A program made the translations under genes and the position numbers. 64,000 nt of DNA from Salinibacter pepae. Its GTDB lineage: Bacteria > Bacteroidota > Rhodothermia > Rhodothermales > Salinibacteraceae. Within the stretch, counting starts at the first letter, position 1. The number at the start of each line of letters is the position of its first letter. The notes beneath the pieces are model-generated. The model was given only the letters and a program-made list of their open reading frames with translations. It ran no database searches and was not told the DNA's origin. The DNA lies in assembly GCF_947077775.1 (NCBI RefSeq), contig NZ_CAMTTE010000001.1, forward strand, positions 3,128,501 to 3,192,500, in the 5' to 3' direction. Below are positions 12,637 to 61,610 of this stretch, piece by piece.

Positions 12637-12759
12637 GCGTCGGAAACCAGTGTGTGGACAGACGATGAGGGCAAATCGTCCTCGTTGCGCGCATTCACCA
12701 TGAAGCTCCGAAGCGATAGACACATTGTAAACCCGTACCCCGTAGCATTTTTTGTGCAG

Positions 12760-12791: not shown

Positions 12792-12825
12792 ATGCGCTCG
12801 CGTCTCACCAAGTTCACCGTCGTCC

Positions 12826-12984: not shown

Positions 12985-13051
12985 AAAAGCCCCCCGGCCA
13001 CGCTTCTAATCCACATGTGTGCCGTGTCTCCTGCAAGGTGCTTCCCCAGTC

Positions 13052-46933: not shown

Positions 46934-47578
46934 ATGACTGTTGCAGTCATCGGTGCCCACGGCGGCATCGGCCGCCGCCTCCTTCCGCGCCTTAACGAGG
47001 CGGGCCACGATCCCATCGGTGTCGTTCGCTCTGAGGACCAATTTGCGGCGATCCGGGGCCGTGGGGCCGAGCCGCGGCTTGGGGATCTGGAGGCGGCGTT
47101 TGCGTCGGCCCTCGACGGGGTGGATGCGGTCGTCTTTGCGGCGGGGGCCGGGGGAAGCACAGGGTGGGACAAGACGATCCTGGTCGACCTCTGGGGGGCC
47201 GAGCGGGCGGTCCGCGCGTGTGAAGAAAAGGAGATCGGCCGGTTCGTCATGATCAGCTCGCGCGGCGCCGGCGATCCGGAGTCGCGACAGGGGCCGATCA
47301 AGCCCTACATCGTGGCCAAGCACGTCGCCGACCGCACGCTCCAGCGCTCGTCGCTCGACGAGACGATCCTGCGGCCCACGCGTCTTACGGATGCGGAGGG
47401 CACCGGTCGCGTCGCGGCCTACGTCGACACGGATCCCGATGCGGGCGATCCCATTCCCCGGGCCGACGTGGCACAGGTCGTGGTCGAGTGTCTGGATCGG
47501 GACATCACGATTGGGCACGCCATCACGCTGTACGGCGGCGACACACCGATTGCGGAGGCGTTAGCCCCGCCTTCCTGA
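46934..47578 (+). CDS. NAD(P)-binding atypical SDR protein
   Basis: 214 residues with an NAD(P)-binding Rossmann fold of the SDR_a5 / NAD(P)H-binding type. The N-terminal dinucleotide loop is VAVIGAHGGIGRRLLPRL, followed by DLEAAFASALDGVDAVVFAAGAGG and the FVMISSRGAGDP strand; the later KPYIVAKHVADRTLQRS has the YxxxK spacing. Enzymes or redox sensors of this group handle NAD(P)H, flavin or quinone substrates, or have no known activity. It stands alone between the barrel gene and the sulfotransferase region. Confidence 0.8.
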   Translation: MTVAVIGAHGGIGRRLLPRLNEAGHDPIGVVRSEDQFAAIRGRGAEPRLGDLEAAFASALDGVDAVVFAAGAGGSTGWDKTILVDLWGAERAVRACEEKEIGRFVMISSRGAGDPESRQGPIKPYIVAKHVADRTLQRSSLDETILRPTRLTDAEGTGRVAAYVDTDPDAGDPIPRADVAQVVVECLDRDITIGHAITLYGGDTPIAEALAPPS

Positions 47579-47685
47579 CACGGCGGGGGGCGAGGGGCCC
47601 GTTTGAGAAGAGGGAGATTGTCGTTTATCCTCCCCATTTGCCTTCTAGAAACCGTGTCTGCACCGATTAATCTGTCTATGACGAG

Positions 47686-48540
47686 ATGACAACGGACGCT
47701 GTATACGATGCGCTGAGGAAGGCCGCGAAAAATTCCATTCCCGGCGGCGCCCTCATGCTACTGAACGAAGGTGTCGTTCAGTTCAATCGGTTGATTGCCG
47801 AAAGCCCGTTCGGGGAGGAGGGGCCGGCCCTGCTCGTGCACTGCTGTCACCACCGGAGCGGCACCGTCTGGTTTACCCGGGTGCTGTCGACGGTGGCCCG
47901 GCAGTACGGCCTTCACTTTCAGGGGGCCGGGCAGGATGCCCTGAAGCCGTCCACGGAGGTGTTTTTGCAGGACCACAGCCGCATCGACCGGTCGGCCCTT
48001 CCGCCGTACCGCGGCTCCCACATGATCCGGGACCCCCGAGACATGGTCGTATCCGGGTACCACTACCACCTCTGGACGGAGGAGGAGTGGGCCCACCACC
48101 CCCGTGAGCAGTACGACGGACAGAGCTTTCGGGAGGCCCTGAACAGCGTGGGGAAGAAGCGAGGGATGATTCTGGAAATGGAGCGCTTCTGCGGAGAAGA
48201 CCTTCAGGATATGCTCCGCTGGGAATATGACGACCCGGCCTTCTTGGAGCTGAAGTACGAAGACGTGATCGCCGACGAGGCCTCTCATTTTGAGGCTCTG
48301 TTCGAGCACTACGGTTTTCACGAGGAGGCGGTGGAGGTCGGGCTGGACGTCGCCCGGTACTACAGCTTTCAAAACCTGTCCGGGCGCAATTTTGGCGAGG
48401 TCGAAGAAGAGTCGCACCTTCGATCGGGGCGGACGAGTCAGTGGGAGGAGCACTTCGACGACGAACTAAAGGCTCGTTTCAAGGAGTTGGCCGGCGATGC
48501 GGTCGTGCAACTCGGCTACGAGGAGAACAACGACTGGTGA
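47686..48540 (+). CDS. Sulfotransferase domain protein 1
   Basis: 284 residues, cytosolic. The PAPS 5'-phosphosulfate loop is HHRSGTVWF (55-63), and the 3'-phosphate site is RDPRDMVVSGYHYH, with Arg115 and Ser123. FLELKYEDVIADE, which closes the fold, is typical of sulfotransferases. These enzymes move sulfate from PAPS to a hydroxyl or amine of a carbohydrate, lipid or protein. It is the first of six such genes in 13.6 kb, all too divergent from each other to be recent copies. It is convergent with sulfotransferase 2. Confidence 0.85.
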   Translation: MTTDAVYDALRKAAKNSIPGGALMLLNEGVVQFNRLIAESPFGEEGPALLVHCCHHRSGTVWFTRVLSTVARQYGLHFQGAGQDALKPSTEVFLQDHSRIDRSALPPYRGSHMIRDPRDMVVSGYHYHLWTEEEWAHHPREQYDGQSFREALNSVGKKRGMILEMERFCGEDLQDMLRWEYDDPAFLELKYEDVIADEASHFEALFEHYGFHEEAVEVGLDVARYYSFQNLSGRNFGEVEEESHLRSGRTSQWEEHFDDELKARFKELAGDAVVQLGYEENNDW

Positions 48541-48584
48541 CGAGACGCCCTGTCTTCTTCCGAACGGGGCTCAGCGGACTGGGG

Positions 48585-49454
48585 CTACCTGTCGGAGGGG
48601 GCTTCGAGAGCCTCGGCGTACACCTCGAACCCGAGGTCGCGTAGATAGGCATAGGTTGGGGCAAACTCTTTCTGCAGCCGCGCCTCCATCTCGGGGGAGA
48701 GGGCTTCGCTTTTGGCCCCCGCCTTCCCCAGAAGACGAAGGAGTGCCAGCTTGGCCTGTCGGGCCGCGGTGCTTCCGAGCAGCCAGCGATAGGCCTGCGG
48801 AAAGTGGCGGCGCAGGGGCCGAACGGTAGAGCGATACACGGCCCGAAAGGCTGGACTGCCCGTCGGATTCTCGGGCTGATCGTTTTCCTCTGGGCGAGGG
48901 GCACGCGGCAGGGCAAGGAAGTCCAGAAGCTCTTCCCAGAACGCCCCCGGATCTGCGTGTCCCGCCTCCAGGCTCACGACCTTGAACCGATCCGCCCCGA
49001 ACCGATCGGTGTACGCCGGAAGGGTCTCTTCGTAGTGACTGGTGTCGATGAGGTACCTCCGATCAGGGAGCGCCTCCGACAGGGAGGTGGCCTCGTCGAT
49101 AAGGCCGAGCTGCTTGTTGTACTGAAACTGGGACAGCAGGCGCTGGATCGGATCGCGGACGATCGCCAGCAGCTTGGCGTCCGGGTTGTAGGCCCGGATT
49201 TCGTCGGCCGTCGCCGCGCTTTTGTAGTACATCACCGTGGCGTCGCCGAAGTACCGATAGTCCTGGTCGAAGGGAAAGTGGCGGTGATACGCCTTGAGGG
49301 TTTTTGGGCCCTCTTCCTCGGGGCCCGCCTCGCCGAAATAGTACAGCTCCTTGGCGTCCGCCATGAACACGTCGGGGTGGTGGTCGAGCAGGTAGTAGAG
49401 CCAGCTCGTACCGGCCTTGTTCACGCCGATAACAAAGAGGTTGACCCGGTTCAT
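48585..49454 (-). CDS. Sulfotransferase domain protein 2
   Basis: 289 residues from the ATG read from 49454; the frame allows eight more residues. The PAPS loop is VNKAGTSWLYYLL (11-23). The 3'-phosphate site is IVRDPIQRLLSQFQ, with Arg100 and Ser108. The ELYYF segment after the loop and RFKVVSLEAGHADPGAFWEELLDFL near the end resemble the heparan-sulfate/NDST-like bacterial group. The C-terminal 80 residues are Arg/Leu-rich. It starts 48 bases after the methyltransferase stop on the same strand, so they are likely cotranscribed. Confidence 0.85.
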   Translation of the reverse strand: MNRVNLFVIGVNKAGTSWLYYLLDHHPDVFMADAKELYYFGEAGPEEEGPKTLKAYHRHFPFDQDYRYFGDATVMYYKSAATADEIRAYNPDAKLLAIVRDPIQRLLSQFQYNKQLGLIDEATSLSEALPDRRYLIDTSHYEETLPAYTDRFGADRFKVVSLEAGHADPGAFWEELLDFLALPRAPRPEENDQPENPTGSPAFRAVYRSTVRPLRRHFPQAYRWLLGSTAARQAKLALLRLLGKAGAKSEALSPEMEARLQKEFAPTYAYLRDLGFEVYAEALEAPSDR

Positions 49455-49502
49455 GGAATCGAAAGGCGAGATGGGCAATGACGACGCGCCGGAGCGGTGA
49501 GG

Positions 49503-50396
49503 TTAGCGGGGCGACTCGCCCCGGATGAGGTATAGCTGCGCGGAGGAGTGGTGTCCGTAGGCGGCGTTCCAGAGGACAGAGAGCGCGGCCACGACGGGCG
49601 CTCGGAGAAGCCACCCGTCCCGGGACTGCTCGCTAAGCAGCGACACGTAAAACGCGTCGAGCCGCATGGGGCGAACGTCGGTTGCGGTCATGCCGTGGCG
49701 GTTGAACAGGCGGCGGATGTCGGGCGGGCGGAAGTGGTACAGGTGGCGGGGCACGTCGTACGCGGCCCAGTCTGCGCCGTAGTACTGGGCGTCGAGGGAC
49801 GCGCAGTTGGGGACGGCCACGACCAGGGTGCCGGTGGGCGCGAGGGTGCGCCGCAGCTCCGCGATTGTGTCGGACAGTTTCGGGACGTGCTCCAGCACGT
49901 GCCAGAGCGTGATTACGTCGAAGTGGTCGGACGGCAGGTCGTGGATGTGTTCGGGGGGCTCCACGGTCAGTCCGTGCGTCGCGGCCGCCACCTCCTGCGC
50001 TTTCTCGTCGGGCTCAAGCCCGCAGGCCGTCCACCCGTGCGAGCGGCAGTGCGCCAGGAACTCCCCCGTTCCGCACCCGAAGTCGAGCAGGCGGCCGGGC
50101 GGGCTGTCGACGAGGCTGGCGACAAGCCGGCGTTTCGAGCGCAGGGTGTAGAGGCGCACCCACCGGTAGAGGGTGTCGATGACGTTCTGACTAGTATCCT
50201 GGTGGGGGGTGTAGCCTTCACTGTCGTAGTACCGTCCAATCTCATCACTGCTGGGCCGCGGGTTGGTGAAGCGGAACCCACAGGCGGTGCACTCCACAAG
50301 GTCAAACGACCTCCCCGAAACGGTGTGGTCCCGGCACGTCGTGAAGGGCCGATGGTGCGTGCCATGGCAGAGGGGGCAGTGGTCGAGATCGTCCAC
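49503..50396 (-). CDS. SAM-dependent methyltransferase with N-terminal zinc ribbon
   Basis: 297 residues. The N-terminus has two CxxC pairs (Cys7/Cys10 and Cys36/Cys39) forming a zinc ribbon, then a class I methyltransferase domain with motif I RLLDFGCGTGEF (102-113), FDVITLWHVLEHVP and LAPTGTLVVAVPN. This combination is common in glycan and sugar methyltransferases of polysaccharide clusters. The start is a GTG read from 50396. It precedes sulfotransferase 2 by 48 bases. The product could O-methylate the same glycan that the sulfotransferases modify; that is inference. Confidence 0.85.
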   Translation of the reverse strand: MDDLDHCPLCHGTHHRPFTTCRDHTVSGRSFDLVECTACGFRFTNPRPSSDEIGRYYDSEGYTPHQDTSQNVIDTLYRWVRLYTLRSKRRLVASLVDSPPGRLLDFGCGTGEFLAHCRSHGWTACGLEPDEKAQEVAAATHGLTVEPPEHIHDLPSDHFDVITLWHVLEHVPKLSDTIAELRRTLAPTGTLVVAVPNCASLDAQYYGADWAAYDVPRHLYHFRPPDIRRLFNRHGMTATDVRPMRLDAFYVSLLSEQSRDGWLLRAPVVAALSVLWNAAYGHHSSAQLYLIRGESPR

Positions 50397-50630
50397 TGAG
50401 AGCGCGGAGACGGGTGTGGGGAAGGGCCGGAGGCTGAGACATTAGCAGATTGCGGCTGATCTGGTTCCGGTACGGGGGCGTAGCGCCGCGACATGTCGAC
50501 AGTCTTGTTCCTCTAGTGGCCGCCTTCCGCCGGAACAGCGAAATAGACCGACCGTTTTGAGACGGCTTGTCAAATTAAGCGGGTTCTCCGGCCCGCGGTC
50601 TCGCCTCGACTGCGTCAGTGCCCAGCTCAC

Positions 50631-53168
50631 ATGGCTTCCTCCGCCCAGACGCCCACCCCGCGCACCGCACAGGCCGATACGTTCTGGACGCGGCTCTCCC
50701 CGACGACACGACATGCGGGCTGCCTCGGAATCGTGCTGGTGGTGGCCCTTGCCTTCTACGCCCCCGCCGTCTTCGAGGGAAAAAACATCCAGGGCACCGA
50801 CAGTATCACCTTTCGGGCCAACGCACAGGTGACGGTAGAGCATCACCAAGAGACGGGGGAGTGGGCCCGCTGGGCCCCGAACGTATTTGGCGGGATGCCC
50901 TACATCAACGAGCAGATCTCCGTCCTACAGCTCGACGATGTGGTAAACCTGGTCCGTGGTGCTGCGTGGCCGGTATCCCTCCTGTTTGTGCTTATGGCGG
51001 GCGTCTACCTGCTCGTCTTCTACCTGACGCGGAATCATCTCTCGGGGCTTTTGTCGGGGCTTGCCTTCGGGTTTACGACGTACATTCCCATCATCATCGG
51101 GGTGGGGCACGGGACCAAGTTCGTGGCGCTGGCCTACGCGCCGTACGTCGTCCTGGCCTTCGTGTATACCCTTCGGAATCCGTCCCTTTTAGGAGGCCTC
51201 CTGTTCGCCGGGGCGCTGGCCCTTCAGCTGCGGGCCAATCACCCGCAGATTGTGTTCTACACGGGCATGCTGCTCCTCCTGTGGTGGATTGTGGAGGCCA
51301 TTGGGGCCTGGCGGGAGGAGCGCGTGCCGGAGCTGGCCACGTCCACCGGCTGGCTCGCGCTGGGGACCGTGTTGAGCCTCGCCATGGCCGCGGAGCCGTA
51401 CCTGGCCCGGTACCAGTACAAGCAGTACTCGGTGCGGGGGGCCGCGGCGGCCGTAAGCGGCGGCGGAGGCGGCGGTGGGGGCATGGGCTGGACGGCGGCC
51501 ATGCGGTGGAGTCACGGGCCGGGGGAGCTGTTCACGTTCGTCGTCGCGGATGCATTTGGCGGCGGCGGGCAAACGTACTGGGGGCCCAAGACCTTTACGG
51601 AGGGGCCGCACTACATGGGCGGGGTTGTCATGGCCCTGGCCGGCCTGGCGGTGTGGCGCGTGCGCACCTGGTTGGTTTGGGGGCTCGGGCTCAGCGTGCT
51701 CGGGACGGCGCTCTTTGCCCTGGGCAAGTACGCCGCCTGGGTCAACGGGCCGATGTTTCAGTACTTCCCGTTTTTCGATGCTTTTCGGGGGCCGGAAATG
51801 TGGCTGAGCGTCACGGCCCTCGCCCTCGCCATCCTGGCCGGCATTGGCCTGGACTACGCGCTGCGACGCGGAGAGCGACAGGGGCGACGAGCGCAGTCCA
51901 CCGATCCTCGGCAGCGCCCCCTTCTCATTGCATTCGGGGCCGTGTTCGGAATTGTGGCGCTGGTCTGGCTTGCCCCCAATACGTTCTTCGACTTCGAGAA
52001 GCCCAACGAGCAGCAACGCATCCGGCAGGCCCTGCTTCGTCAGAACCCGAACGTCTCGCCCCAGAACCCGCGTGTGCAAAAGGCGGTGCAGCAGCAGATG
52101 CAGAAGCTCAAAACGCAGCGGCGCTCCGCCCTCACGACCGACACGCAGCGGACGATGCTCTTCCTCGTTCTGGCCGCAGGGGTGCTCGTGCTGTACCGCC
52201 GCGAGACCCTCCCGGCATGGGGGGCGGGCCTGGCGGTCGTGGCGATCGTGGGCATCGACCTCTGGGGCGTCGATTCGCGGTACATGGGAGCCGACCGCTA
52301 CTCGTCCCAAGAGGTGGAGCAGTCCATCCCGACGTACCCGTTTGACCAGTTCATCAAGAAAAAGCAGCAGGCGGCCGGGGGGCTGGGTCGCTTTCGCGTT
52401 CTCTCGCTGGTCGAGGGAGACCCGACGAGCAGGGCACGCCCCTCCTACCACTACGAAAACGTAGGGGGGTACCATGGGGCCAAGCTGCAGCGCTATCAAG
52501 ACTATCTTGATCACATCCTGCAGGTGACTGGCTCGGGCCCGCCGAACGAGAACGCCCTCGACCTGATGAACACGCGCTACATCGCGGCCCGTCAGCAGTT
52601 GCCGGGGACCGAGGTGGCCTACCGCAGTCAGGAGTCGGGCGTACTGGTGCTGGAGAACCAAGACGCCCTGCCGCGCGGCTTTCTCGTGGGGCAGACGGAG
52701 GTTGTTGACGCCCCGAAACAGACCTGGTCGCGGCTGCGCTCCTCGACGTTCAACCCGCGGCAGACCGCCCTTCTTCCAGCACCCCTCGACCAGCCGGTCG
52801 TGCCCCTCGACAGCAATAGCACGGCCGAGGTGACCCTGGAGCACTACGAGCCGGAAGAGATCCGGTGGACCGTAGAGACGGATGCGCCCCGCTTGTTCGT
52901 GGCGAGTGAGGTGTATTACCCGGCCGGCTGGAACGCGTACCTGGACGGAGAGCAGGTGCCCATCCACCGCACCAACTACCTGCTGCGCGGCGTGCATGTG
53001 CCGGCGGGAGAGCACACGGTGGAGATGCGCTTCGAGCCGGCGGCCGACCGCTACGGCACCTGGATCGCGTGGGCGAGCACGATCCTTGTCTACGGGGGCG
53101 TCGTAGCACTCGTTGGCATGCGGGTGCGCCGGCAGAGAGGCGCGGGCGCCGGCGACGATGACGCGTAG
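50631..53168 (+). CDS. YfhO-family multi-spanning membrane protein
   Basis: 845 residues with about twelve membrane helices in the first two thirds (GIVLVVALAFYAPAVF, LLFVLMAGVYLLVFYL, LLLLWWIVEAIGAW and more) and a C-terminal soluble domain ending EHTVEMRFEPAADRYG plus one last helix. It matches the YfhO family, GT-C-type membrane proteins that in Firmicutes add sugars to lipoteichoic acid. The N-terminal DSITFRANAQ loop may carry the catalytic Asp. An eight-Gly run at 51459-51482 is unusual. It is flanked by genes on the other strand and would act on the outer face of the inner membrane. Confidence 0.8.
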   Translation: MASSAQTPTPRTAQADTFWTRLSPTTRHAGCLGIVLVVALAFYAPAVFEGKNIQGTDSITFRANAQVTVEHHQETGEWARWAPNVFGGMPYINEQISVLQLDDVVNLVRGAAWPVSLLFVLMAGVYLLVFYLTRNHLSGLLSGLAFGFTTYIPIIIGVGHGTKFVALAYAPYVVLAFVYTLRNPSLLGGLLFAGALALQLRANHPQIVFYTGMLLLLWWIVEAIGAWREERVPELATSTGWLALGTVLSLAMAAEPYLARYQYKQYSVRGAAAAVSGGGGGGGGMGWTAAMRWSHGPGELFTFVVADAFGGGGQTYWGPKTFTEGPHYMGGVVMALAGLAVWRVRTWLVWGLGLSVLGTALFALGKYAAWVNGPMFQYFPFFDAFRGPEMWLSVTALALAILAGIGLDYALRRGERQGRRAQSTDPRQRPLLIAFGAVFGIVALVWLAPNTFFDFEKPNEQQRIRQALLRQNPNVSPQNPRVQKAVQQQMQKLKTQRRSALTTDTQRTMLFLVLAAGVLVLYRRETLPAWGAGLAVVAIVGIDLWGVDSRYMGADRYSSQEVEQSIPTYPFDQFIKKKQQAAGGLGRFRVLSLVEGDPTSRARPSYHYENVGGYHGAKLQRYQDYLDHILQVTGSGPPNENALDLMNTRYIAARQQLPGTEVAYRSQESGVLVLENQDALPRGFLVGQTEVVDAPKQTWSRLRSSTFNPRQTALLPAPLDQPVVPLDSNSTAEVTLEHYEPEEIRWTVETDAPRLFVASEVYYPAGWNAYLDGEQVPIHRTNYLLRGVHVPAGEHTVEMRFEPAADRYGTWIAWASTILVYGGVVALVGMRVRRQRGAGAGDDDA

Positions 53169-53183
53169 GGGCAGAAAGGATTG

Positions 53184-54113
53184 CTAGCTCGGCGGTGCGG
53201 GCTTGTCGTAGCCGTATTCCTGTAGCGTCGGCGCGATCGCCTCTTCGAGACGCTCAATCTGCTCCGCCTGGAGCCGCATCCGCCACGTGGTCCGGGGCGG
53301 GCGCACCTTGTCTAGGTGTCTGTGGTTCTCCCTCGTGAAGAACTCCTCAGGGGAGAGCGAGGCGGTGGAGAACACGCGACGGAGCACCCGGCCTGGGGCG
53401 TTAAGAAGAGACTCGTAGTGAACCTCCAGGCAGTGGTCCTCGGGAAAGCGGCCGAGGTCGGCTCGAATTTGGCTAATGCATTGCTTCCAGGTCCATGCAG
53501 CCTGTTCAACAGGAGTAGCCGACTGGACGGACTGCCAGCCCGGAGGGCGCACGCCCCACCATTGGTGGAGCCCGCCGCTCGCCCGGCGGCGTTTGAGAAT
53601 GGACGCCGCAACGGCCCGGCCGTCCCGAATCAGGTGAATGATGTGGGCTTGTGGGAACAGGGCCTGGAGAAACGGGAGCCGAAAGGCGTTTTTGGGGGTT
53701 TTCCAAACGAGCCGAGGGCGGTCGTGATACCTTCGATGCCAGCGCACGACGTCGTGGAGGTACTCGCGAGTGGCGGAGGTTACGTTCTCCGCCGTCGCCC
53801 GGTGGTCCTCGGCAGGCGGGAGCGCCCGGTCCCAGATGGCGTGCCCTTCGTGGGTCTCAAAGGTTGAAGGTAGTCCAAGGGAGCCGTCGTACGGGCCGCG
53901 CAGGAGCGGGGGCAAAGTAGCATTGGGGAGGCGATGCAGGACCCATTCGATAGACCATGCAGCAGAGGGCGGGACGTGTCGAAACCACGGCTTGCCGCAC
54001 ACCCCGTTGCTGAAGGGCGTGATCCAGGCCACCTGGGGGTGAAGCCGGACCAGCTGTTGCAGTATTCCTGTCCCTGATCGCGGACAGCCGACAATGAAGA
54101 TGGGACGATCCAT
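53184..54113 (-). CDS. Sulfotransferase domain protein 3
   Basis: 309 residues from the ATG read from 54113, giving MDRPIFIVGCPRSGTGIL with the PAPS loop at 10-15. The 3'-phosphate site is LIRDGRAVAASILKRRR. WKTPKNAFRLPFLQALFPQAHI is the characteristic sulfotransferase_3-type lysine block. The C-terminal part has helix-rich DNA-free sequence (RLQAEQIERLEEAI). It is convergent with the YfhO gene (15 bases) and divergent from the propeller gene. Confidence 0.85.
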   Translation of the reverse strand: MDRPIFIVGCPRSGTGILQQLVRLHPQVAWITPFSNGVCGKPWFRHVPPSAAWSIEWVLHRLPNATLPPLLRGPYDGSLGLPSTFETHEGHAIWDRALPPAEDHRATAENVTSATREYLHDVVRWHRRYHDRPRLVWKTPKNAFRLPFLQALFPQAHIIHLIRDGRAVAASILKRRRASGGLHQWWGVRPPGWQSVQSATPVEQAAWTWKQCISQIRADLGRFPEDHCLEVHYESLLNAPGRVLRRVFSTASLSPEEFFTRENHRHLDKVRPPRTTWRMRLQAEQIERLEEAIAPTLQEYGYDKPAPPS

Positions 54114-54278
54114 GAAATCACGCGGTGGGACTGCAGGACAAAGCTCAGGGGGGCGACAGTGGGAACTGGCTTGCGCTATCGAAACAGGGCCCACGGCGGA
54201 CCGGTTCGGGACGTCGTTTACGTGGGGACTCCTGCATCTTCCGTTCAATCGTCTCATCCACGGCCGATTCTCTGCCGA

Positions 54279-55409
54279 ATGACCGATCCCGATGTTTTCC
54301 GTGAGGCCCTGAACGACTTTTCCTTGATGTCCGAGGGGGAGGCGATGACTGGGAAGCCCTCGGTACAACCCTCAACGCTGGCGTTCGGAACCGTGGTCCG
54401 GGCGGCCCCGATTGCGGAGGGGGGCGAACTGGTGCTCCTCGACTGGGATTCAAAGACGGTGGAGGCGACCGTGCCCATTCGCCCGCGCAATCCCACCATC
54501 GAAGAGGACCCAAACCCACGCGGGAACGGGCGGGGGTGTCGGGGCGTCCGGCAGGTCAATGGGCGTCTGGTCGCGTCTACGTACCACACGCTCGAACTGT
54601 ACGACGATCACCTGAACCAGATGGGCGCGATCAGTGGGGGACTGATGGCGGGGCTCCACGAGATTGCGCTGACGGACCGCGGGACGGTGTGGGTGACATC
54701 CACGGCGATCGATGCGACAGTGGAGTACAATTTGGAAACCGGGGATCGGATTCGTGCATACTGGCCCCGAGAGATGGATGGGCTCCAGGCGGCCCTCGGC
54801 CTGCGTCCCCTGGACATCGACAAAAGTGCCGATAATCGGCTCCGGTTTCTTGACCCAGCCGCCACGGATGCCGAGAGTCACCTGCACCTCAACGCCGTCG
54901 AGGTCCACAATGGGGCCCTCTACGCGCTGTTCAACGCGTACGGCGTGGTGGCCAACCTGACGACCGAGGAGGTGGTACTGGAGCATGAGCATCTCCGAGG
55001 CGGGCACAATCTGGTCATTGGGAACGACGGGATCGCCATCGTCAACGACTCATTCGGCAAGGCCGTGCGGTTCTACGATCTGGATGCCGGGCAGCTTCAG
55101 CGAACGATCGATCTCACAGAATTCGAGTGGGTTCGGGACCTCATCCGCTGGGAAGTGCCCATGTACTGGGGCAAGGAGGCCCTGCGGAAGTTTGGGGGCA
55201 TCGAGGGATCGGTCGCAAAGCCGCTCTTCGTGCGGGGGCTCGCCCGTCGGGAAGACACGCTGTTCATCGGCGTCTCGCCTGCGGCCATCCTGCAAGTCGA
55301 CGTCGCAACGGAGGCGCTGGTGGACGCATACCAGTACTCATCGAACGTCCACGCCTGCATTCACGGCCTCGCGGTTCTAGATGACACTGCGTTTCAGGCG
55401 GGGGCGTGA
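54279..55409 (+). CDS. Beta-propeller-like protein of a sulfotransferase-linked family
   Basis: 376 residues without a signal peptide. Repeating strand units are visible: GELVLLDWDSKTVEATVPI, GRLVASTYHTLELYDDHLNQ, LHEIALTDRGTVWVTSTA, VHNGALYALFNAYGVVAN and DTLFIGVSPAAILQVDV. A conserved-looking GLHEI turn recalls DLHG/GLHD motifs of propellers found next to sulfotransferase genes. It could bind a glycan or nucleotide or be an enzyme. Its last 16 bases overlap the end of the convergent sulfotransferase 4 gene. Confidence 0.65.
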   Translation: MTDPDVFREALNDFSLMSEGEAMTGKPSVQPSTLAFGTVVRAAPIAEGGELVLLDWDSKTVEATVPIRPRNPTIEEDPNPRGNGRGCRGVRQVNGRLVASTYHTLELYDDHLNQMGAISGGLMAGLHEIALTDRGTVWVTSTAIDATVEYNLETGDRIRAYWPREMDGLQAALGLRPLDIDKSADNRLRFLDPAATDAESHLHLNAVEVHNGALYALFNAYGVVANLTTEEVVLEHEHLRGGHNLVIGNDGIAIVNDSFGKAVRFYDLDAGQLQRTIDLTEFEWVRDLIRWEVPMYWGKEALRKFGGIEGSVAKPLFVRGLARREDTLFIGVSPAAILQVDVATEALVDAYQYSSNVHACIHGLAVLDDTAFQAGA

Positions 55410-56221
55410 CCCGATCCGTTGTCTTCGTCGAGATACTTGGCGTACGGGGTGCCGTCGAGTCGCCGCGCGAGTTCCTCGTAGTTGGTCACACGGTTCCGGA
55501 TGGAGGAGGGGGCGACCTTGCGGTAGCTGCTTTCGACCGGTCCCGACGTGATCCCGAGAACATCACAGATCCGATCGACCGTCGTCTGGTGGTCGTCCGC
55601 GTGGCGGATGTGTTCTTCGTAGGTCAGTGAGAGGTGGGGGACGTCGGTAAGCAGCGTCTCCTCGTACCGTCGAAGGGCCTGGCTACTTCGCATCCATTCC
55701 ATCACCCGGTCGGGGTCTACATGCAGGGCCGTCGGCTTGCCGGTCGGGTCGGACCGCTTCCGGTGAAATGTCTCGCGTCGCGCCCGGATGTTGGAGAGTG
55801 CATGGCGCACCAGGTTCTCCCGACGAAGGTACAGGACCTGGAAGCCGTGGTCGTGGTGAAGGGTGCGGAGAAAGTTTTCACGCCGTCCGGGGGGGCGCTG
55901 CACGTCTTTAATCTGATAGCTGAGAACCTTGCAGCCGTACGCCTCTGCCGAGCAGCCGGCGGCGCGGCCCAGGATGTGCCGGTAGGGGAAGGGCACGTAG
56001 TTGTGGAGCACCTCCCCCGCGCATCGCAGCCCCGGCACATCGTTGAGCATGCTCACGAGTGCCGTGGTCCCTGAGCGTCCTCGCCCGAACAAGACGAATC
56101 GGGTCTCGGGGAGCGGTCGGCCGGAAAGATAGCTCACCCCAGCCTGCAGGTGGCGAACTTGCTGGCGGGCGAACAGATACCGTTGTTTCAGACCAGTTTG
56201 CGCTGCATCAAGGATCGACAT
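55394..56221 (-). CDS. Sulfotransferase domain protein 4 (Stf0/NodH-like)
   Basis: 275 residues from the ATG read from 56221. The PAPS loop is FGRGRSGTTALVSML, followed by the AGEVLH segment typical of Stf0 and NodH sulfotransferases, which sulfate trehalose or Nod factors. The 3'-phosphate site is YLRRENLVRHALSNI, also of the NodH kind. SLTYEEHIRHADDHQTTVDRI and the conserved Tyr/Arg pair near the end (SSIRNRVTNYEEL) complete the fold. It starts 67 bases after the flippase stop on the same strand, so the two may be cotranscribed. Confidence 0.87.
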   Translation of the reverse strand: MSILDAAQTGLKQRYLFARQQVRHLQAGVSYLSGRPLPETRFVLFGRGRSGTTALVSMLNDVPGLRCAGEVLHNYVPFPYRHILGRAAGCSAEAYGCKVLSYQIKDVQRPPGRRENFLRTLHHDHGFQVLYLRRENLVRHALSNIRARRETFHRKRSDPTGKPTALHVDPDRVMEWMRSSQALRRYEETLLTDVPHLSLTYEEHIRHADDHQTTVDRICDVLGITSGPVESSYRKVAPSSIRNRVTNYEELARRLDGTPYAKYLDEDNGSGHAPA

Positions 56222-56288
56222 GGAAAAGAAGCGCTCGGAAGAAGCCGCGTTGTGCCTTGGCGGGCCTGAGGCCCACGGCGGACAGGGC

Positions 56289-57845
56289 CTACGCACCCAG
56301 CCGTGTCCGCAGTTCCGCCCACAAGTCGTCCGCAATGGCCTGGTCGCGGGGGGAAAGACCCAGGGCGAGCAGGACGCCGCCGTAGACGAGCAGGGCCACG
56401 GGGATGCCAACCAGCCAACGGCTCAGAGAGGCGAGCTGAGCGAAGAGCACCCACGCCACGGCTCCCGATGCTCCCGCTGCGGCGAGGGGCTTCCACAGGT
56501 TCCACCGGAACGGCTGGATGTGGGTAAAGTGATAAAGCCCCCACAGCTGAAAGACATTGCCCAGAACGTGAGCCGCGCCCGTCGCAAGGGCCGCGCCCAC
56601 GACCCCGTACCACTGAATGAGGATCCAGTTGAGCCCTACGTTCAACACGGCCATGCTGGCGTTCACCCAAAAAGCAAAGTCCTGATGGTCCGACATCTGC
56701 AGCATGTGGCCCACCGACCCGGACCCGGCGACGACAATGTAGGCACCCGCCAGCACCCGAAGCAGAAGAGCACCCTCCCGAAACTCCGTCCCGAAGAGGG
56801 CCATGATGTCCGGGGCGAACACGATCAAGACCACCGCCAGTGGAAGGGTGCCCAGGGCGATCCACCGAACGGTATCGGCGTACAGTTGAGCCAGCTCGTC
56901 GGTCCGGCCGCTGTGGTACAGTTCGGAGATGACGGGGGAGAACGCGGCTGTGAGCGCGAACAGGACAAACCGGAGCTGGACCGACATCTTAGACGCGGCG
57001 GTGTAGAGCCCCACGGCCTCTTCCCCGGCGAGGGGACCCAGCATGATCCGATCGGCCCGGGCGAGGCCTATGCTGGCGAGGCTTACCCCCACGATGGGGA
57101 GGGAAAAGCGCAGGAGGGTCCGAAGGTCGACCGTCGGGGCCAAGGATGAAAAGAGCGGAGGAAACAGCCGGTAGGCCGCGTACACCGACGCCCCGGCGGC
57201 CAGCACAGTGGAGGCCAGAAAGGCGTATAGGGCCATCGTGAACCCCTGTCCCAGTAGCAGAATGATGCCCGTAAGTAGCAGAAAGAGGGCCGGCTGAAGA
57301 ATCGAGTCGAGAAGCACGTCCACCCGCATTTGGCCAAGGGCGCGGGCCATGCGGGAGCCGAGATAGGTGAAGACGTAAAAGGGCAGCGCGGTCCCAAAGA
57401 GCTGAAAGACGAGCGGATCGTTCGTACTCCTGAGGGCGACCTCGGACAGCCAGGGGGCGGCCAGGTAGAGCGCCCCGCCCATGAGAACACCGGCTCCGGT
57501 CCCGAGTCCGCCAACGGCCAGGAACGTCCCTTTCAGCGCCGCCTCGTTTCCGTCTTCTCTGTGCTCGGCCCCGAACCGGACCACGCCGTTCTGAAGGCCG
57601 AGCGTACTCAGTTCGCGGACAATCCGAAGAACAGAAAGCCCGTAGCTGTAGAGGCCGTAAAGGGTTTTGCCGAACCCCCGGCCGAGAACGACCTGCAGGG
57701 CAAACCCGACAGCCTTCGCAATGAGGGAGCCGGAAAAGACCGAGCCTCCTCCCTTCAGAATGCGGTCGGCATAGTCAGGCGCCTCGTCCCCCTCATCCGT
57801 ACGGGCGTGGGAAGACGGGGCGTCGTGCTCCGACGAATGGCTCAT
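56289..57845 (-). CDS. Polysaccharide flippase (Wzx/MOP family)
   Basis: 518 residues with 12-14 membrane helices. A charged N-terminal leader (about 28 residues) precedes ILKGGGSVFSGSLIAKAVGFALQ, the usual first helix. YGLYSYGLSVLRIVREL, SLPIVGVSLASIGLARADRIMLG and GLYTAASKMS are standard for MOP flippases, which carry undecaprenyl-linked oligosaccharides across the inner membrane. It suggests that a lipid-linked glycan is exported by this locus; no polymerase (Wzy) gene is evident. The divergent region upstream holds a 16-base palindrome. Confidence 0.9.
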   Translation of the reverse strand: MSHSSEHDAPSSHARTDEGDEAPDYADRILKGGGSVFSGSLIAKAVGFALQVVLGRGFGKTLYGLYSYGLSVLRIVRELSTLGLQNGVVRFGAEHREDGNEAALKGTFLAVGGLGTGAGVLMGGALYLAAPWLSEVALRSTNDPLVFQLFGTALPFYVFTYLGSRMARALGQMRVDVLLDSILQPALFLLLTGIILLLGQGFTMALYAFLASTVLAAGASVYAAYRLFPPLFSSLAPTVDLRTLLRFSLPIVGVSLASIGLARADRIMLGPLAGEEAVGLYTAASKMSVQLRFVLFALTAAFSPVISELYHSGRTDELAQLYADTVRWIALGTLPLAVVLIVFAPDIMALFGTEFREGALLLRVLAGAYIVVAGSGSVGHMLQMSDHQDFAFWVNASMAVLNVGLNWILIQWYGVVGAALATGAAHVLGNVFQLWGLYHFTHIQPFRWNLWKPLAAAGASGAVAWVLFAQLASLSRWLVGIPVALLVYGGVLLALGLSPRDQAIADDLWAELRTRLGA

Positions 57846-58316
57846 GTGGAAACGTAGAAAACAAAGGCGTCAACGCATTGGGGACGGCCGCCGAATTTGT
57901 CGCTGTTGGGCAGGAGACCCCCTCAAGAAATCAGTGAATGCTGACTGTATCGAGGGACGGGGCAGGTTTTGGTCGAGGATTGACGCAGGACACCGAGGTG
58001 CCCCCGGTCGTACCGTTCGCGGGGCCTGAAGTCCCAATCCGTCTTCAATGAAGGCCACGCGGGGATCATCTGATCCCTCCCAAAGTTGCTTACCACGCTT
58101 TTGCTTTCTGGGGCATAAAAGAGTGGACAATGAGCGTGGCGTCGTGTCTTCCGGGGGCCCCATTGCATCCTCAGCACGTCGCAAACTGATCTCAGACCCC
58201 AGGCCGAAGACCCTCTGTCTCGAAAGGCCCCTGCCCCCTGGCCCCGGGACGTAACGCAGAAGAAACCCATGCGCGCTGAACCACGCACTTGCCCTTCGCA
58301 ATTCGGGGACGTACCC
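57846..58316. other. Divergent intergenic region with a palindrome
   Basis: About 470 bases between the flippase and sulfotransferase 5 genes hold no supported gene. A perfect dyad GGGATCA-TC-TGATCCC lies at 58062-58077. The region likely contains promoters for both directions. Confidence 0.5.
58062..58077. promoter_or_regulatory. Perfect 16-base dyad between two glycan operons
   Basis: GGGATCA (58062-58068) and TGATCCC (58071-58077) are exact complements around TC. It lies midway between the divergent flippase and sulfotransferase 5 starts. It could be an operator or a small hairpin. Confidence 0.45.
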
Positions 58317-59258
58317 ATGGCGGCGATGCCGAACACATTCGTCATTGGGGCGGCCAAGTCGGGGACGACCTCGCTGTACGACTACCTACGGCAACACCCG
58401 GATGTGTTCATGAGTCCGGTGAAGGAGCCGTGCTACTTTGCGTACAGGGAGAACCCCCCCGAGATGGCCGGGCCAGGAGACCGAGAGGCGAACCGAGAGT
58501 CCGGGGTTGTCTACACGATGAACGAGTACGAGGCCCTGTTTTCAGGCGCGAGGGGGGAGGCCATTGTGGGGGAAGCCTCGCCCGTGTACCTCTACGACCA
58601 GGATGCGCCGCGCCTCCTGCACGAGCAGTGTCCGGGCGCCTCGCTCATCGCGATCCTCCGCAACCCCATCGTGCGGGCCCACTCCCACTACCTCCAGTTG
58701 GTCCAGAGCGGCCGCGAACCGCTGGACCGCTTCGAGGCCGCCCTCGACGCGGAGGATGAGCGGGTGGCTGCAGGATGGGAATGGTCGTGGCACTACCGGC
58801 GCATGGGGCTCTACGGCCGGCAACTGGCGCGGTATCTGGACTACTTCGACCGTGACCAACTGCACATTTACCGCTTTGACGAGCTCACGACGAATCCTGC
58901 GGGCTTCGCCAAGACCGTGTACCGGATGCTCGGCGTAGACCCGTCCTTTACGCCCGACACCGGGGTTCGGCGCCGCGCCACGGGGGTGCCTCAGTTCGAC
59001 TGGCTGCACCGGTTTATCGGGACCCCGGACCACTTCCTGCGGCGGTGGTCGCGCCTCGTGCTTCCGGAGGCCGTGCGCGACCGGATCCTCATGGCGGTGC
59101 GGAACGCGAACCTGCAAAAGCCGCCCCTGCCGGACGCCGCCCGGGCTCGCCTGGTGGACGCGTACCGCGACGACGTGCGCCGGCTAGAGGCGCTGCTTGA
59201 CCGTTCCTTTTCTGACTGGCTAACTACGGACGACGACCGAATCGCTGATGACGGATGA
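58317..59258 (+). CDS. Sulfotransferase domain protein 5
   Basis: 313 residues from the ATG at 58317; the frame continues 16 codons upstream to another ATG. The PAPS loop is VIGAAKSGTTSLYDYL, followed by KEPCYF. The 3'-phosphate site is AILRNPIVRAHSHYLQL, where the usual RDP reads RNP, as in several heparan-type bacterial enzymes. HYRRMGLYGRQLARYLDYF and QLHIYRFDELTTNP follow the typical order. It overlaps the start of the glycosyltransferase gene by 11 bases, indicating coupling. Confidence 0.87.
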   Translation: MAAMPNTFVIGAAKSGTTSLYDYLRQHPDVFMSPVKEPCYFAYRENPPEMAGPGDREANRESGVVYTMNEYEALFSGARGEAIVGEASPVYLYDQDAPRLLHEQCPGASLIAILRNPIVRAHSHYLQLVQSGREPLDRFEAALDAEDERVAAGWEWSWHYRRMGLYGRQLARYLDYFDRDQLHIYRFDELTTNPAGFAKTVYRMLGVDPSFTPDTGVRRRATGVPQFDWLHRFIGTPDHFLRRWSRLVLPEAVRDRILMAVRNANLQKPPLPDAARARLVDAYRDDVRRLEALLDRSFSDWLTTDDDRIADDG

Positions 59259-60348
59259 TCGACCGGAAGGAGGCAACGGCACCGGGCCCGGCCGACCGCT
59301 GAGGGTGCTCGGCTGGCCGGGATTCTCGAGCGAGAACGGCAACCCGTATACCCGCCTGCTCTATGAGGCGATGGAGACGGAGGCACGAGTGGACGTGGAT
59401 GGGTTCTCGATGTTTGAACCCCTCCAGCGCCGCTACGACATCTGGCACGTGCACTGGCCGGAAGACTTTCTGAGCTACCGGTCGCCAGGGGCGGCCTACT
59501 TCTACGTCGCGGCGGAGTTGCTTCTCTTTGCGTGGGCCCGGCTCTGGGGCACCCGGCTCGTGTGGACGGTCCACGACCTCGGTCCGCACGAGTCGTACCA
59601 CCCGCAGCTGGAGCGTCTCTTCTGGCCGCTCTTTCTCCCGATGGTGGACGGCATCATCAGCCTCAGTGAGACAGCCCGGGAGGCGGCCTACGACCGCTTC
59701 CCTGTGCTCCGGTCCGTCCCGAGCGCGATCGTGCCGCACGGCCACTACCGCACGGCCTATCCGGAACCCGTCGCCAAAGCGGAGGCTCGGCGCCAGTCTG
59801 ACCTCGACCCGGCGGCCCCGGTGATGCTGTTCGTGGGGCGCATTCGGCCGTACAAAAACGTCGTGTCCCTGATTCAAACCTTCCGGCAGTGGAAACGGTC
59901 GGCGGCGCGTCTCGTGGTCGCCGGGAATCCCGTTTCCGACGATCTGGGCGGGCGCGTCCAGGCGGCGGCCGAGGCGGACGCCCGTGTCCGCACGGCCCTC
60001 CGGTTCATCGAAGAAGACGAGATGCCGGCCCTTATCGCAGGCGCCGATCTCGTCGTCCTCCCCTACGAGTCCATCATGCACTCGGGCTCGGCACTGCTTG
60101 CCTTGTCGTACGACCGACCGATCCTTGTTCCAGACCGCGGTGCCATGACGGAACTGCGAGCGCGGGTGGGGCGGGACTGGGTCCGGACCTACACGGGCGA
60201 GCTCACCCCATCGGCGCTGGCTGAGAGCATGGCGTGGGCCCGGACGACCGAGCGGGCGGCACGAGCGCCCGTGGACGACCTCGACTGGCCCCGGCTGTCC
60301 CGCCAGACCGTCGCGCTCTATCGTCGCGTCCTGGAGGCCCATGACTGA
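59248..60348 (+). CDS. GT-B fold glycosyltransferase
   Basis: 366 residues with no signal peptide. The N-terminal half has RPLRVLGWPGFSSENGNPYTR and DIWHVHWPEDF; the nucleotide-sugar half has VMLFVGRIRPYKNVVSLIQTF, IEEDEMPALIAGADLVVLPY and SGSALLALSYDRPILVPDRG. These are the features of GT4-type or related retaining/inverting GT-B enzymes, such as those that build exopolysaccharide repeat units. Donor and acceptor cannot be told. It overlaps the genes on either side (11 and 8 bases), making a tight sulfotransferase-glycosyltransferase-sulfotransferase unit. Confidence 0.87.
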   Translation: MTDDRPEGGNGTGPGRPLRVLGWPGFSSENGNPYTRLLYEAMETEARVDVDGFSMFEPLQRRYDIWHVHWPEDFLSYRSPGAAYFYVAAELLLFAWARLWGTRLVWTVHDLGPHESYHPQLERLFWPLFLPMVDGIISLSETAREAAYDRFPVLRSVPSAIVPHGHYRTAYPEPVAKAEARRQSDLDPAAPVMLFVGRIRPYKNVVSLIQTFRQWKRSAARLVVAGNPVSDDLGGRVQAAAEADARVRTALRFIEEDEMPALIAGADLVVLPYESIMHSGSALLALSYDRPILVPDRGAMTELRARVGRDWVRTYTGELTPSALAESMAWARTTERAARAPVDDLDWPRLSRQTVALYRRVLEAHD

Positions 60349-61330
60349 GTCGCGCGCTCCCCGGCATCCGGTGTTCGTGGTCGGCATGCCGCGCTCGGGC
60401 ACCACGCTGCTCAGCAGCCTGCTCGACGCGCATCCCGACCTCGTGATCGCTCCGGAGACGCACTACTTCGCGCGGTGCTGGTCCGGAGGGGAAATCGACG
60501 GCTGGGCCGACGTGGAGCGGATGCTTGCCCGACTCAACCAGCAGCCGGGCGTGCACGACATGGCACTCGCCGATGACGAGTGGGCTGCCATTCGCAGCCG
60601 GCTCCGCGCCCTGGAGGCCCCCACTCACGGGGACATTCTCCGTGCCCTGATTGAGACGTACACTGCGCGCTCAGAGGCCCCGGCATGGGGGGAGAAGACC
60701 CCGGACCATCTCCGGCACGTCCCCGAAATGGCGCGCCAGTTTCCCAATGCCGTCTTCCTGGCCATCATTCGCGACCCCCGGGACGTGGTGCTTTCACTGC
60801 GGAATCTGCCGTGGAGCCGACGCACGGCGCCGGAGCAGGCGTGGACGTGGCGCACCTACGCGGCCCTCGTGGACCGTTATCGGACCCACCGCAAGGGCCG
60901 ATTTTTTGCGCTTCGGTACGAAGACCTGATCGTACATCCCGAGGCTTGCCTCCGAGACGTGTGCGCCTTCTTAGAAACCCCGTTCCACGAGGCGATGCTC
61001 CAACCCCGTCAGCAAGAAGACCAGCACTTTGATCCCGACCGGGAGCCTTGGAAGCAAAAAAGTGCTCGCGAGATTGATGCCTCCAACCGAGAAAAATGGC
61101 GTGCGCAAATGCCGGAGGCGGAGCGGGTGGTCGTGGAGGTCATTGCGGGGCGGTGGCTCTCCGCTTACGACTACTCCCGGCCCCGCGTCAGATGGCGGCC
61201 CGCCCTGATTGGACGGATCTTGCAGCGCCTTGGCAGGGCGGCGCTCCAGCGAGGCCGGCGCGCCCTCCGCAAGATCCGCTCAGGCCGGGTGTTCAGCAAC
61301 GACGCAGCGCCGCGGTGGACGAAAGAGTAG
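60341..61330 (+). CDS. Sulfotransferase domain protein 6
   Basis: 329 residues. The PAPS loop is VVGMPRSGTTLLSSLL (12-27), followed by APETHYF. The 3'-phosphate site is AIIRDPRDVVLSLRN, and GEKTPDHLRHVPEMARQFPNAVF is the strong sulfotransferase_3-type lysine block. The C-terminal about 60 residues are very Arg-rich and unlike the acidic proteome, perhaps a membrane- or polyanion-binding tail. Its ATG overlaps the glycosyltransferase stop by 8 bases. It is the last gene of that unit, 280 bases before nrnA. Confidence 0.87.
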   Translation: MTESRAPRHPVFVVGMPRSGTTLLSSLLDAHPDLVIAPETHYFARCWSGGEIDGWADVERMLARLNQQPGVHDMALADDEWAAIRSRLRALEAPTHGDILRALIETYTARSEAPAWGEKTPDHLRHVPEMARQFPNAVFLAIIRDPRDVVLSLRNLPWSRRTAPEQAWTWRTYAALVDRYRTHRKGRFFALRYEDLIVHPEACLRDVCAFLETPFHEAMLQPRQQEDQHFDPDREPWKQKSAREIDASNREKWRAQMPEAERVVVEVIAGRWLSAYDYSRPRVRWRPALIGRILQRLGRAALQRGRRALRKIRSGRVFSNDAAPRWTKE

Positions 61331-61610
61331 ACCGGGTCCACCACACACATGAGGAGCCCCGCCGGCCAGTCCCCCACTGCCTTCTAAAGAGCGTCTTGGT
61401 TGCCTTCCATTTTCGAAAATCCCTACTACGTCTGGTCAATACAGGGACGCTGTGGGGCTTCATTCACTTTCTAAAACCGGTCCCCCGCCGCACTCCTCGT
61501 CGCGGACGCAAACGAGAACGTCCCCATGTGGGCTGAACCCTTCGTGGGGGCCCTCCGTTAGGTGTAGGCTATTTACGCCATCTCGCCCACGGGAGCCCTG
61601 GAGGCGCCGC

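What the first reader, a model, noticed from the sequence alone, without database searches (positions are those of the whole stretch)
47686..61330. Six different sulfotransferase genes interleaved with glycan genes: a likely sulfated-surface-glycan locus
Seen directly: six proteins with PAPS loops (47686, 48585, 53184, 55394, 58317, 60341) within 13.6 kb. They are mixed with a methyltransferase, a YfhO-type protein, a flippase, a GT-B glycosyltransferase and a beta-propeller-like protein, on both strands. Pairing into small units (methyltransferase + ST2, flippase + ST4, ST5-GT-ST6 with overlapping ends) suggests functional modules. Inference: the locus makes and decorates a sulfated exopolysaccharide or glycolipid, plausible as a salt-adapted acidic surface. 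I know of no described system with this content, but cannot search.
Basis: partly seen in the sequence, partly recalled or inferred. Interest (0 to 1): 0.78.

Follow-up and report, generated by a model that had tools for sequence, protein, structure and literature searches.

The report
Salinibacter surface-sugar island with six sulfotransferases
A salt-loving bacterium carries a swappable block of genes that most likely builds a sugar chain for the cell surface and adds sulfate groups to it with six different enzymes; related blocks are already known, so it is a striking variant rather than a new kind of system.

Summary
All six proteins are PAPS-type sulfotransferases by profile and motifs (ST4 only just), mutually divergent (best full-length pair 26% identical). 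They are six of at least 11 in this Salinibacter genome, within 13.6 kb, beside a methyltransferase, a YfhO-type membrane glycosyltransferase, a Wzx-like flippase and one GT4 glycosyltransferase. The "beta-propeller" could not be confirmed. Seven of 13 genus genomes (own included) hold the block, whole or rearranged, under purifying selection. In the sister genome, S. ruber DSM 13855, the flanks are 92-97.5% identical in DNA, but inside only 4.5 kb align (72-77%); the rest is other sulfotransferases, other glycosyltransferases and an ABC transporter instead of the flippase. That is how exchangeable surface-antigen loci behave. Best reading: a lipid-linked oligosaccharide is built and sulfated in the cytoplasm, flipped, finished by YfhO and displayed. 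No product was shown. Sulfotransferase- and glycosyltransferase-rich variable islands are already in print for S. ruber, though the island coordinates I read exclude this site, and a one-sulfotransferase cluster with YfhO and methyltransferase is published for Pontiella. New variant of a known kind.

The parts
46934..47578 (+). NAD(P)-binding SDR-like protein; conserved left flank of the island
   Evidence: PF13460 148.3 bits; 92% aa identity to DSM 13855; DNA match to DSM 13855 ends at 47560
47686..48540 (+). ST1, PAPS sulfotransferase (SULT-like, weak); group found in 3 of 22 loci examined (G000, G004, G007)
   Evidence: PF00685 48 bits; PDB hits only at E 0.002, one of them SULT2A8
48585..49454 (-). 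ST2, PAPS sulfotransferase related to heparan sulfate 3-O-sulfotransferases; genus-wide neighbour of YfhO
   Evidence: PF13469 48.3 bits; PDB 3rnl, 3uan; group in 12 of 22 loci examined; K35-E36 invariant in 7 of 7
49503..50396 (-). SAM-dependent methyltransferase (Methyltransf_23)
   Evidence: 103.2 bits; in pieces in G004
50631..53168 (+). YfhO-type membrane protein (probable GT-C glycosyltransferase; fold class recalled), anchor of the locus
   Evidence: PF09586 35.4 bits; one match in 24 of 27 family genomes, own included
53184..54113 (-). ST3, PAPS sulfotransferase
   Evidence: PF13469 99.5 bits; distant to tyrosylprotein sulfotransferases
54279..55409 (+). orphan protein of unknown fold ('propeller-like' unproven); full length in 4 of 13 genus genomes, in pieces or a remnant in 2
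   Evidence: no Pfam/NCBIfam match; dN/dS 0.17 to G005
55394..56221 (-). ST4, divergent PAPS sulfotransferase
   Evidence: PF13469 27.4 bits with this start; profile match to ST6 orthologues 93.5% probability, to ST5 orthologues 13%, GT control 0.1%
56289..57845 (-). Wzx-like (MOP superfamily) oligosaccharide flippase
   Evidence: PF01943 76.8 bits
58326..59258 (+). ST5, PAPS sulfotransferase related to heparan sulfate 3-O-/N-sulfotransferases; alternative start 58269
   Evidence: PF13469 57.5 bits with the longer ORF; PDB 3rnl E 1.9e-60, 1t8t E 3.4e-14; K33-E34 invariant in 7 of 7
59248..60348 (+). GT4-type glycosyltransferase (GT4b)
   Evidence: PF13692 42.7 bits
60341..61330 (+). ST6, PAPS sulfotransferase; its group also lies beside a GT4 in G016, G018 and G022, outside the genus
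   Evidence: PF13469 129.3 bits; group in 10 of 22 loci examined
61611..62684 (+). DHH-DHHA1 phosphoesterase (NrnA-like); conserved right flank, core gene, probably not part of the island
   Evidence: PF01368/PF02272; NrnA model 103.5 bits, below its cut-off of 350; one match in 37 of 41 genomes, own included

Best explanation
The island (about 47560-61486) encodes an exchangeable sulfated surface-glycan pathway. Inferred steps: (1) a short oligosaccharide is built on a polyprenyl carrier in the cytoplasm, with GT4b and with glycosyltransferases encoded elsewhere. (2) Cytoplasmic sulfotransferases ST1-ST6 each add sulfate from PAPS to a different position, and the methyltransferase adds a methyl group. 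(3) The Wzx-like flippase turns the lipid-linked unit to the periplasm. (4) YfhO, a GT-C type enzyme, adds or transfers a sugar there. (5) The unit is passed to an outer-surface polymer, lipid or protein. Shown here: family membership, motifs, purifying selection, linkage to YfhO, and cassette replacement between near-identical flanks, including a switch of transporter class. Not shown: any product, acceptor, sulfate position or export. The cassette turnover suggests selection on surface identity (phages); an acidic coat useful in brine is compatible but untested.
For: Six sulfotransferases. Flippase, GT4, YfhO and methyltransferase. ST2 and ST5 are nearest, among solved structures, to 3rnl and then to heparan sulfate 3-O-/N-sulfotransferases, which act on sugars; the Glu of a KE motif aligns with a Glu of those enzymes and is invariant in 7 of 7 orthologues each. 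An APS kinase exists in the genome. Purifying selection: dN/dS 0.08-0.25 for the six against orthologues with at least 61% identity, except ST6 against G006 at 0.30; more distant pairs up to 0.41. Same order in G004, G007, G005 and G006 (ST1 missing from G005 and G006, orphan gene missing from G006 and broken in G004 and G007), rearranged in G001 and G012. DSM 13855 (G003, named by its plasmid): flanking nrnA dS 0.07 but ST2/MT/YfhO dS 0.90-1.01, and the right part replaced, with an ABC transporter in the locus and no flippase; an ABC transporter also in G009 by a local profile. NrnA tree: G000 and G003 together (94/83, just under the starred level), G004 and G007 next.
Against: No NDP-sugar gene among the island proteins scanned and no Wzy_C polymerase/ligase in the locus; Wzy_C matches lie elsewhere (contig C2 and C1:2717119). 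Only one cytoplasmic glycosyltransferase is left here: a second GT4, in the locus of 8 of 13 genus genomes, has no match at E<=1e-40 in this genome, so the pathway must borrow enzymes. The one APS kinase match is about 0.5 Mb away, unlike the PAPS genes inside Vibrio and Cobetia sulfated-capsule clusters. The initiating transferase was not searched for. ST4 is the weakest call (13% against the ST5 profile; no significant solved relative). No structure model was usable.
Confidence: 0.72

Rival explanations
1. The sulfotransferases make a sulfated glycolipid or other small secreted metabolite, not a polymer or protein-bound glycan; YfhO and the flippase handle a mono- or oligosaccharide lipid.
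For: Only one cytoplasmic glycosyltransferase and no polymerase or ligase found in the block. A passage of PMC3669384 reports that two S. ruber strains differ in sulfonated and glycosylated metabolites, mainly extracellular.
Against: Flippase and GT4 content with cassette exchange is typical of O-antigen/capsule-type loci (general knowledge); ST2/ST5 are related to heparan sulfate sulfotransferases.
Confidence: 0.17
2. Bacterial counterpart of the haloarchaeal route: the sulfated, methylated lipid-linked oligosaccharide is transferred to surface proteins.
For: Same logical parts as described for Halobacterium salinarum (lipid-bound tetrasaccharide, two sulfotransferases, methylation, flippase; passages of PMC11980604); an ABC transporter is found instead of the flippase in DSM 13855, as in some bacterial protein-glycosylation loci (recalled).
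Against: No oligosaccharyltransferase identified among the island proteins; YfhO is known for teichoic-acid glycosylation in Gram-positives (passages of PMC7389260), not for protein transfer.
Confidence: 0.08
3. Chance or decaying assemblage: sulfotransferase genes gathered by transfer with no common pathway.
For: Genes lie on both strands; the orphan gene is broken in G004 and G007, the methyltransferase in G004, and one GT4 has no match in G000, G004 and G007.
Against: Purifying selection on all six sulfotransferases and on YfhO, flippase and GT; synteny in four other species-level genomes; 0 of 2,000,000 random draws reach five of 11 in this space.
Confidence: 0.03

Closest known systems
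Sulfotransferase/glycosyltransferase-enriched hypervariable (flexible) islands of Salinibacter ruber (PMC3669384 passage; PMC6060240 passages and one whole section; PMC2800850 passages; Pena 2010 only as cited there)
   Same: Same genus, same enrichment, variable content, tied there to O-antigen and phage recognition
   Different: Islands listed for M31 (taken to be DSM 13855, recalled) lie at 224-358 kb, 775-863 kb and 1.360-1.404 Mb at 55.8-62.1% GC; the homologous locus lies at 1.270-1.285 Mb of G003:C1 (assuming the same numbering), and the window block averages about 65% GC
Putative sulfated glycosaminoglycan cluster of Pontiella sulfatireligans F21 (PMC7356697, passages and figure legend)
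   Same: GT4 and GT2 enzymes, tuaB (flippase homologue, recalled), methyltransferase, sulfotransferase and yfhO in one cluster; sulfated exopolymer measured
   Different: One sulfotransferase is named in that cluster, not six; different phylum; homology of individual genes not tested here
Halobacterium salinarum sulfated N-glycan pathway (PMC11980604, passages)
   Same: Lipid-linked oligosaccharide, sulfated by two enzymes, methylated and flipped, in a brine organism
   Different: Archaeal; its sulfotransferase genes had been annotated as alkaline-phosphatase-domain proteins (sequence relation to PF00685/PF13469 not tested here); a dedicated oligosaccharyltransferase (AglB) is known
Sulfated capsule clusters of Vibrio sp. 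KMM 8419 and Cobetia marina KMM 1449 (PMC11641403, PMC11766843, passages)
   Same: Sulfotransferases within surface-polysaccharide loci
   Different: Those carry PAPS synthesis genes, nucleotide-sugar genes and ABC capsule export in clusters of about 70-80 genes; three sulfotransferases are named for the Vibrio cluster, the number for Cobetia was not seen

Membership tests
PAPS-dependent sulfotransferase superfamily | Match to a sulfotransferase profile above the curated score | tested here: met
   6 of 6, ST4 only just (27.4 against 27) and only with the shorter start
PAPS-dependent sulfotransferase superfamily | 5' phosphosulfate loop and 3' phosphate-binding element | tested here: met
   6 of 6; motif definitions recalled
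PAPS-dependent sulfotransferase superfamily | Sulfate transfer activity from PAPS | not testable with these tools
   no assay
Heparan-sulfate-type glucosaminyl sulfotransferases (ST2, ST5) | Sequence relation and conserved catalytic Glu | tested here: met
   KE invariant in 7 of 7 for each; catalytic role of the Glu recalled
Heparan-sulfate-type glucosaminyl sulfotransferases (ST2, ST5) | Acts on glucosamine of a glycosaminoglycan | not testable with these tools
   acceptor unknown; best hit 3rnl is listed only as 'Sulfotransferase'
Wzx/Wzy-type O-antigen or capsule locus | Wzx-type flippase | tested here: met
   PF01943 76.8 bits
Wzx/Wzy-type O-antigen or capsule locus | Wzy polymerase in the locus | tested here: not met
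   Wzy_C only elsewhere in the genome; a divergent Wzy would be missed
Wzx/Wzy-type O-antigen or capsule locus | Several glycosyltransferases and nucleotide-sugar genes | tested here: not met
   one GT4 plus YfhO, no sugar-nucleotide gene among the island proteins scanned
Wzx/Wzy-type O-antigen or capsule locus | Initiating sugar-phosphate transferase | not tested
   no search made
Published S. ruber variable islands | Position inside the mapped islands of DSM 13855 | tested here: not met
   homologous locus at 1.270-1.285 Mb of G003:C1 against coordinates; assumes the same numbering
Published S. ruber variable islands | Variable content between conserved flanks | tested here: met
   between species-level genomes only, not within one species
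NrnA (61611-62684) | NCBIfam NrnA equivalog score | tested here: not met
   103.5 bits against cut-off 350

The most novel reading that the evidence does not exclude
Salinibacter keeps a dedicated, exchangeable 'sulfation-pattern' locus. It is a YfhO-anchored pathway whose set of highly divergent sulfotransferases (and whose transporter class) is swapped as a cassette, so that species and possibly strains display differently sulfated but otherwise similar lipid-linked glycans. It would be a bacterial parallel to the sulfated glycans of the haloarchaea with which it shares brine.
Probability: 0.25. Interest if true: 0.72.

Novelty: new variant of a known kind. Interest (0 to 1): 0.47.

Why it matters
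If right, one compact locus would link two open topics in hypersaline biology: what the surface of a dominant brine bacterium is made of, and how it varies against phages. It also offers six natural sulfotransferases, two of them related to heparan-sulfate enzymes, in a salt-loving bacterium, with a natural cassette swap that predicts different sulfation patterns and can be tested chemically.

Tried and rejected
NrnA-like neighbour as a dedicated PAP-recycling partner of the sulfotransferases: rejected as part of the island. It has one match in 37 of 41 genomes, own included, and in the nrnA loci of G001, G005, G006, G008, G009, G010, G011 and G012 it lies with pdxA and no hit to the island's proteins, although its position here could still be convenient.

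Beta-propeller claim: searched in Pfam, NCBIfam, PDB sequences and phages without a credible match; the single-sequence model had mean pLDDT 34.8. ST4 model from three rows: mean pLDDT 35.5. Neither was used and no fold search was made.

Sulfonolipid synthesis as the purpose: rejected from general knowledge (PAPS enzymes make sulfate esters, sulfonolipids carry C-S bonds); not tested.

Gain of sulfotransferases as a polarised 'accretion': the presence/absence pattern on the NrnA tree needs 3 changes, but key forks are open and the chosen outgroup does not form one side of a branch, so gain and loss cannot be told apart. G013's locus is cut at a contig end; G041 and G023 (partial YfhO matches) were not examined. 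G002 and G011 of the genus gave no YfhO match (62% and 83% complete). In one search my ST3 query was out of frame; its ST3 rows are not used, and searches used the corrected frame.

Literature: Pena 2010 did not come up in the searches; it is known here only as cited in PMC3669384 and PMC6060240. Absence of this locus from print rests on searches of open-access papers only.
Full report
WHAT IS THERE. ST1, ST2, ST3, ST5 and ST6 pass Pfam gathering scores. ST4 passes by a hair with the likelier start 55394-56221 (27.4 against 27 bits), and 8 of 8 orthologue rows match the same family at E<=0.01, two rows being the same gene. A profile comparison of the ST4 orthologues with the ST6 orthologues gives 93.5% probability, against 0.1% for a GT4 control, but only 13% against the ST5 profile. 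Each of the six has a 5' P-loop and a 3' R...S element. They are not recent duplicates: the best full-length pair (ST2/ST5) is 26% identical. Between them lie a methyltransferase, a YfhO-family membrane protein, a Wzx-like flippase and one GT4 glycosyltransferase, plus an orphan protein (54279-55409) for which 'beta-propeller' remains unproven. No tRNA was found in the window, and no Rfam family at gathering score.

HOW UNUSUAL. The genome (3.63 Mb, three contigs) has at least 11 distinct sulfotransferase genes: 10 by my count of the rows, five of them here, plus ST4, which those two searches did not list; other genes as divergent as ST4 would be missed too. With 11 genes placed at random, five or more within 13.6 kb never occurred in 2,000,000 draws. 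The lineage as a whole is rich in such genes: 37 of 41 genomes (own included) match Sulfotransfer_3, against 2 of 14 control genomes. One APS kinase match, which could supply PAPS, is present elsewhere (C1:2671842).

WHICH ORGANISM. 

CONSERVATION AND TURNOVER. The block keeps its order in G004, G007, G005 and G006 and is rearranged in G001 and G012: 7 of 13 genus genomes, own included. ST1 is missing from G005 and G006 and the orphan gene from G006. G003, G008, G009 and G010 keep an ST2-group gene, YfhO and a GT4 but otherwise other genes, apart from the methyltransferase that G003 also keeps; G002 and G011, both incomplete, gave no YfhO match. Grouped at 35% identity by single linkage, the ST5, ST2, ST6, ST4, ST3 and ST1 groups occur in 9, 12, 10, 7, 6 and 3 of the 22 genomes whose YfhO neighbourhood was examined. 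Pairwise dN/dS of the six sulfotransferases is 0.08-0.25 against orthologues at 61% identity or more, except ST6 against G006 at 0.30; more distant pairs give up to 0.41, and one non-orthologous comparison (ST5 to a G003 gene, 34% identity) gives 0.70. Parts do decay: the orphan gene is in pieces in G004 and a remnant in G007, the methyltransferase is in pieces in G004, and a second GT4 with a match in 8 of 13 genus genomes has none at E<=1e-40 in this genome, G004 and G007.

CASSETTE REPLACEMENT. This is the strongest new result. Against DSM 13855 the left flank is 92-94% and the right flank 97.5% identical in DNA. Inside, 48617-50387 and 50528-53102 are 72% and 77% identical, and 47561-48616 and 53103-61485 have no match at this blastn setting. 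Synonymous divergence is 0.07 for nrnA, 0.06 for pdxA (158 codons only) and 0.22 for the SDR gene, but 0.90-1.01 for ST2, MT and YfhO; against G004 it is 0.29-0.79 across block and flanks alike, the broken methyltransferase left out. On the NrnA tree G000 and G003 stand together (94/83, just under the starred level), so the DSM 13855 block, not the window's, looks like the exchanged one. The right part of the DSM 13855 locus encodes other sulfotransferases (three by local profile), two GT4, one GT2 and an ABC transporter with membrane domain, and no flippase by the same local profile. Two unrelated transporter classes in one locus fits a lipid-linked glycan that must cross the membrane (inference).

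DEEPER RELATIVES. YfhO has one match in 24 of 27 family genomes, own included. Of 22 neighbourhoods examined, all 11 Salinibacter ones hold sulfotransferases (3-6 within 15 kb; the loci of G005 and G006 were fetched in two pieces and hold six each when both are read). Among the other genera, G013, G016, G017, G018 and G022 hold 1-4, and G014, G015, G020, G021, G024 and G042 hold none (several of these loci are cut by contig ends). YfhO with a GT4 is the most widely shared part: a GT4 lies in 21 of the 22 neighbourhoods (not in G024, whose contig ends soon after YfhO; in G000, G004 and G007 only GT4b). The sulfotransferases are the variable addition; gain and loss cannot be told apart with this tree.

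WHAT THE ENZYMES RESEMBLE. ST5 and ST2 are nearest among solved structures to 3rnl (listed as 'Sulfotransferase') and then to heparan sulfate 3-O- and N-sulfotransferases. The Glu of a KE motif aligns with a Glu of those enzymes, and the motif is invariant in 7 of 7 orthologues each; that this Glu is catalytic is recalled. ST6 and ST3 are nearest to tyrosylprotein sulfotransferases, ST1 weakly to SULT, ST4 to nothing significant. This does not fix acceptors.

MECHANISM. Best reading: a lipid-linked oligosaccharide is built and sulfated in the cytoplasm, flipped, finished by YfhO and displayed. YfhO proteins of Gram-positives are thought to add sugars from a C55-P donor to teichoic acid outside the membrane (passages of PMC7389260). 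Not found in the block: nucleotide-sugar genes, a polymerase or ligase (Wzy_C matches over the cut-off at C1:2717119, about 0.46 Mb away, and on contig C2) and an APS kinase. The block must therefore rely on the rest of the genome, as a tailoring and export module would.

WHAT IS KNOWN. A passage of PMC3669384 and PMC6060240 (passages, whole island section) say S. ruber variable regions are enriched in sulfotransferases and glycosyltransferases, linked in the latter to O-antigen and phage recognition. The island coordinates given for M31 there and for DSM 13855 in PMC2800850 (passages) exclude 1.270-1.285 Mb, where the homologous locus lies on G003:C1; this assumes that G003:C1 is numbered as in those papers. 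Passages and a legend of PMC7356697 describe a Pontiella cluster with GT4, GT2, tuaB, methyltransferase, sulfotransferase and yfhO, from an organism with measured sulfated exopolymer. Passages of PMC11980604 describe two sulfotransferases, a flippase and methylation in the Halobacterium pathway; deletion there had only small motility effects and the charge contribution of the sulfates was called minor, which is a caution against the salt-adaptation argument. Passages of PMC11641403 and PMC11766843 describe sulfated-capsule clusters that do carry PAPS genes. I found no paper describing this locus in searches.

VERDICT. Novelty lies in six divergent sulfotransferases, the YfhO anchor and the cassette swap with change of transporter class: a new variant of a known kind.

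Noticed in passing
L036 (G000:C1:1630000-1649900), 10419-13822: Two sulfotransferase genes in tandem lie head to head with a flagellin gene. The start of a flagellin gene is also seen beside them in G002 and G003, i.e. 3 of the 5 genus genomes that have these genes (13 searched); in the other two, G004 and G007, the fetched loci begin at the contig start just before the genes. Possible sulfation of flagellin or its glycan.
   Followed up: partly
L037 and L038 (G000:C1:2696000-2733900): A second surface-polysaccharide region with two sulfotransferases, NeuB, a CBS-domain nucleotidyltransferase, a heparinase II/III-like protein and a Wzy_C match at C1:2717119; it may supply enzymes missing from the window block.
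   Followed up: partly
G000:C2:15905-16303: The best Wzy_C match of the whole genome is on the second contig (39,810 bases), which resembles Salinibacter plasmids in part.
   Followed up: no
L017 5423-6439 and equivalents: A YbbR-domain protein sits beside ST6 or the flippase in several relatives but was not found at that place in the window; its role in a glycan locus is unclear.
   Followed up: no
window 57846-58268: A 423-base gap between flippase and the longer ST5 ORF, where G005 and G006 carry the second GT4; tblastn of that GT4 family against the window found no remnant at E<=1e-3.
   Followed up: yes
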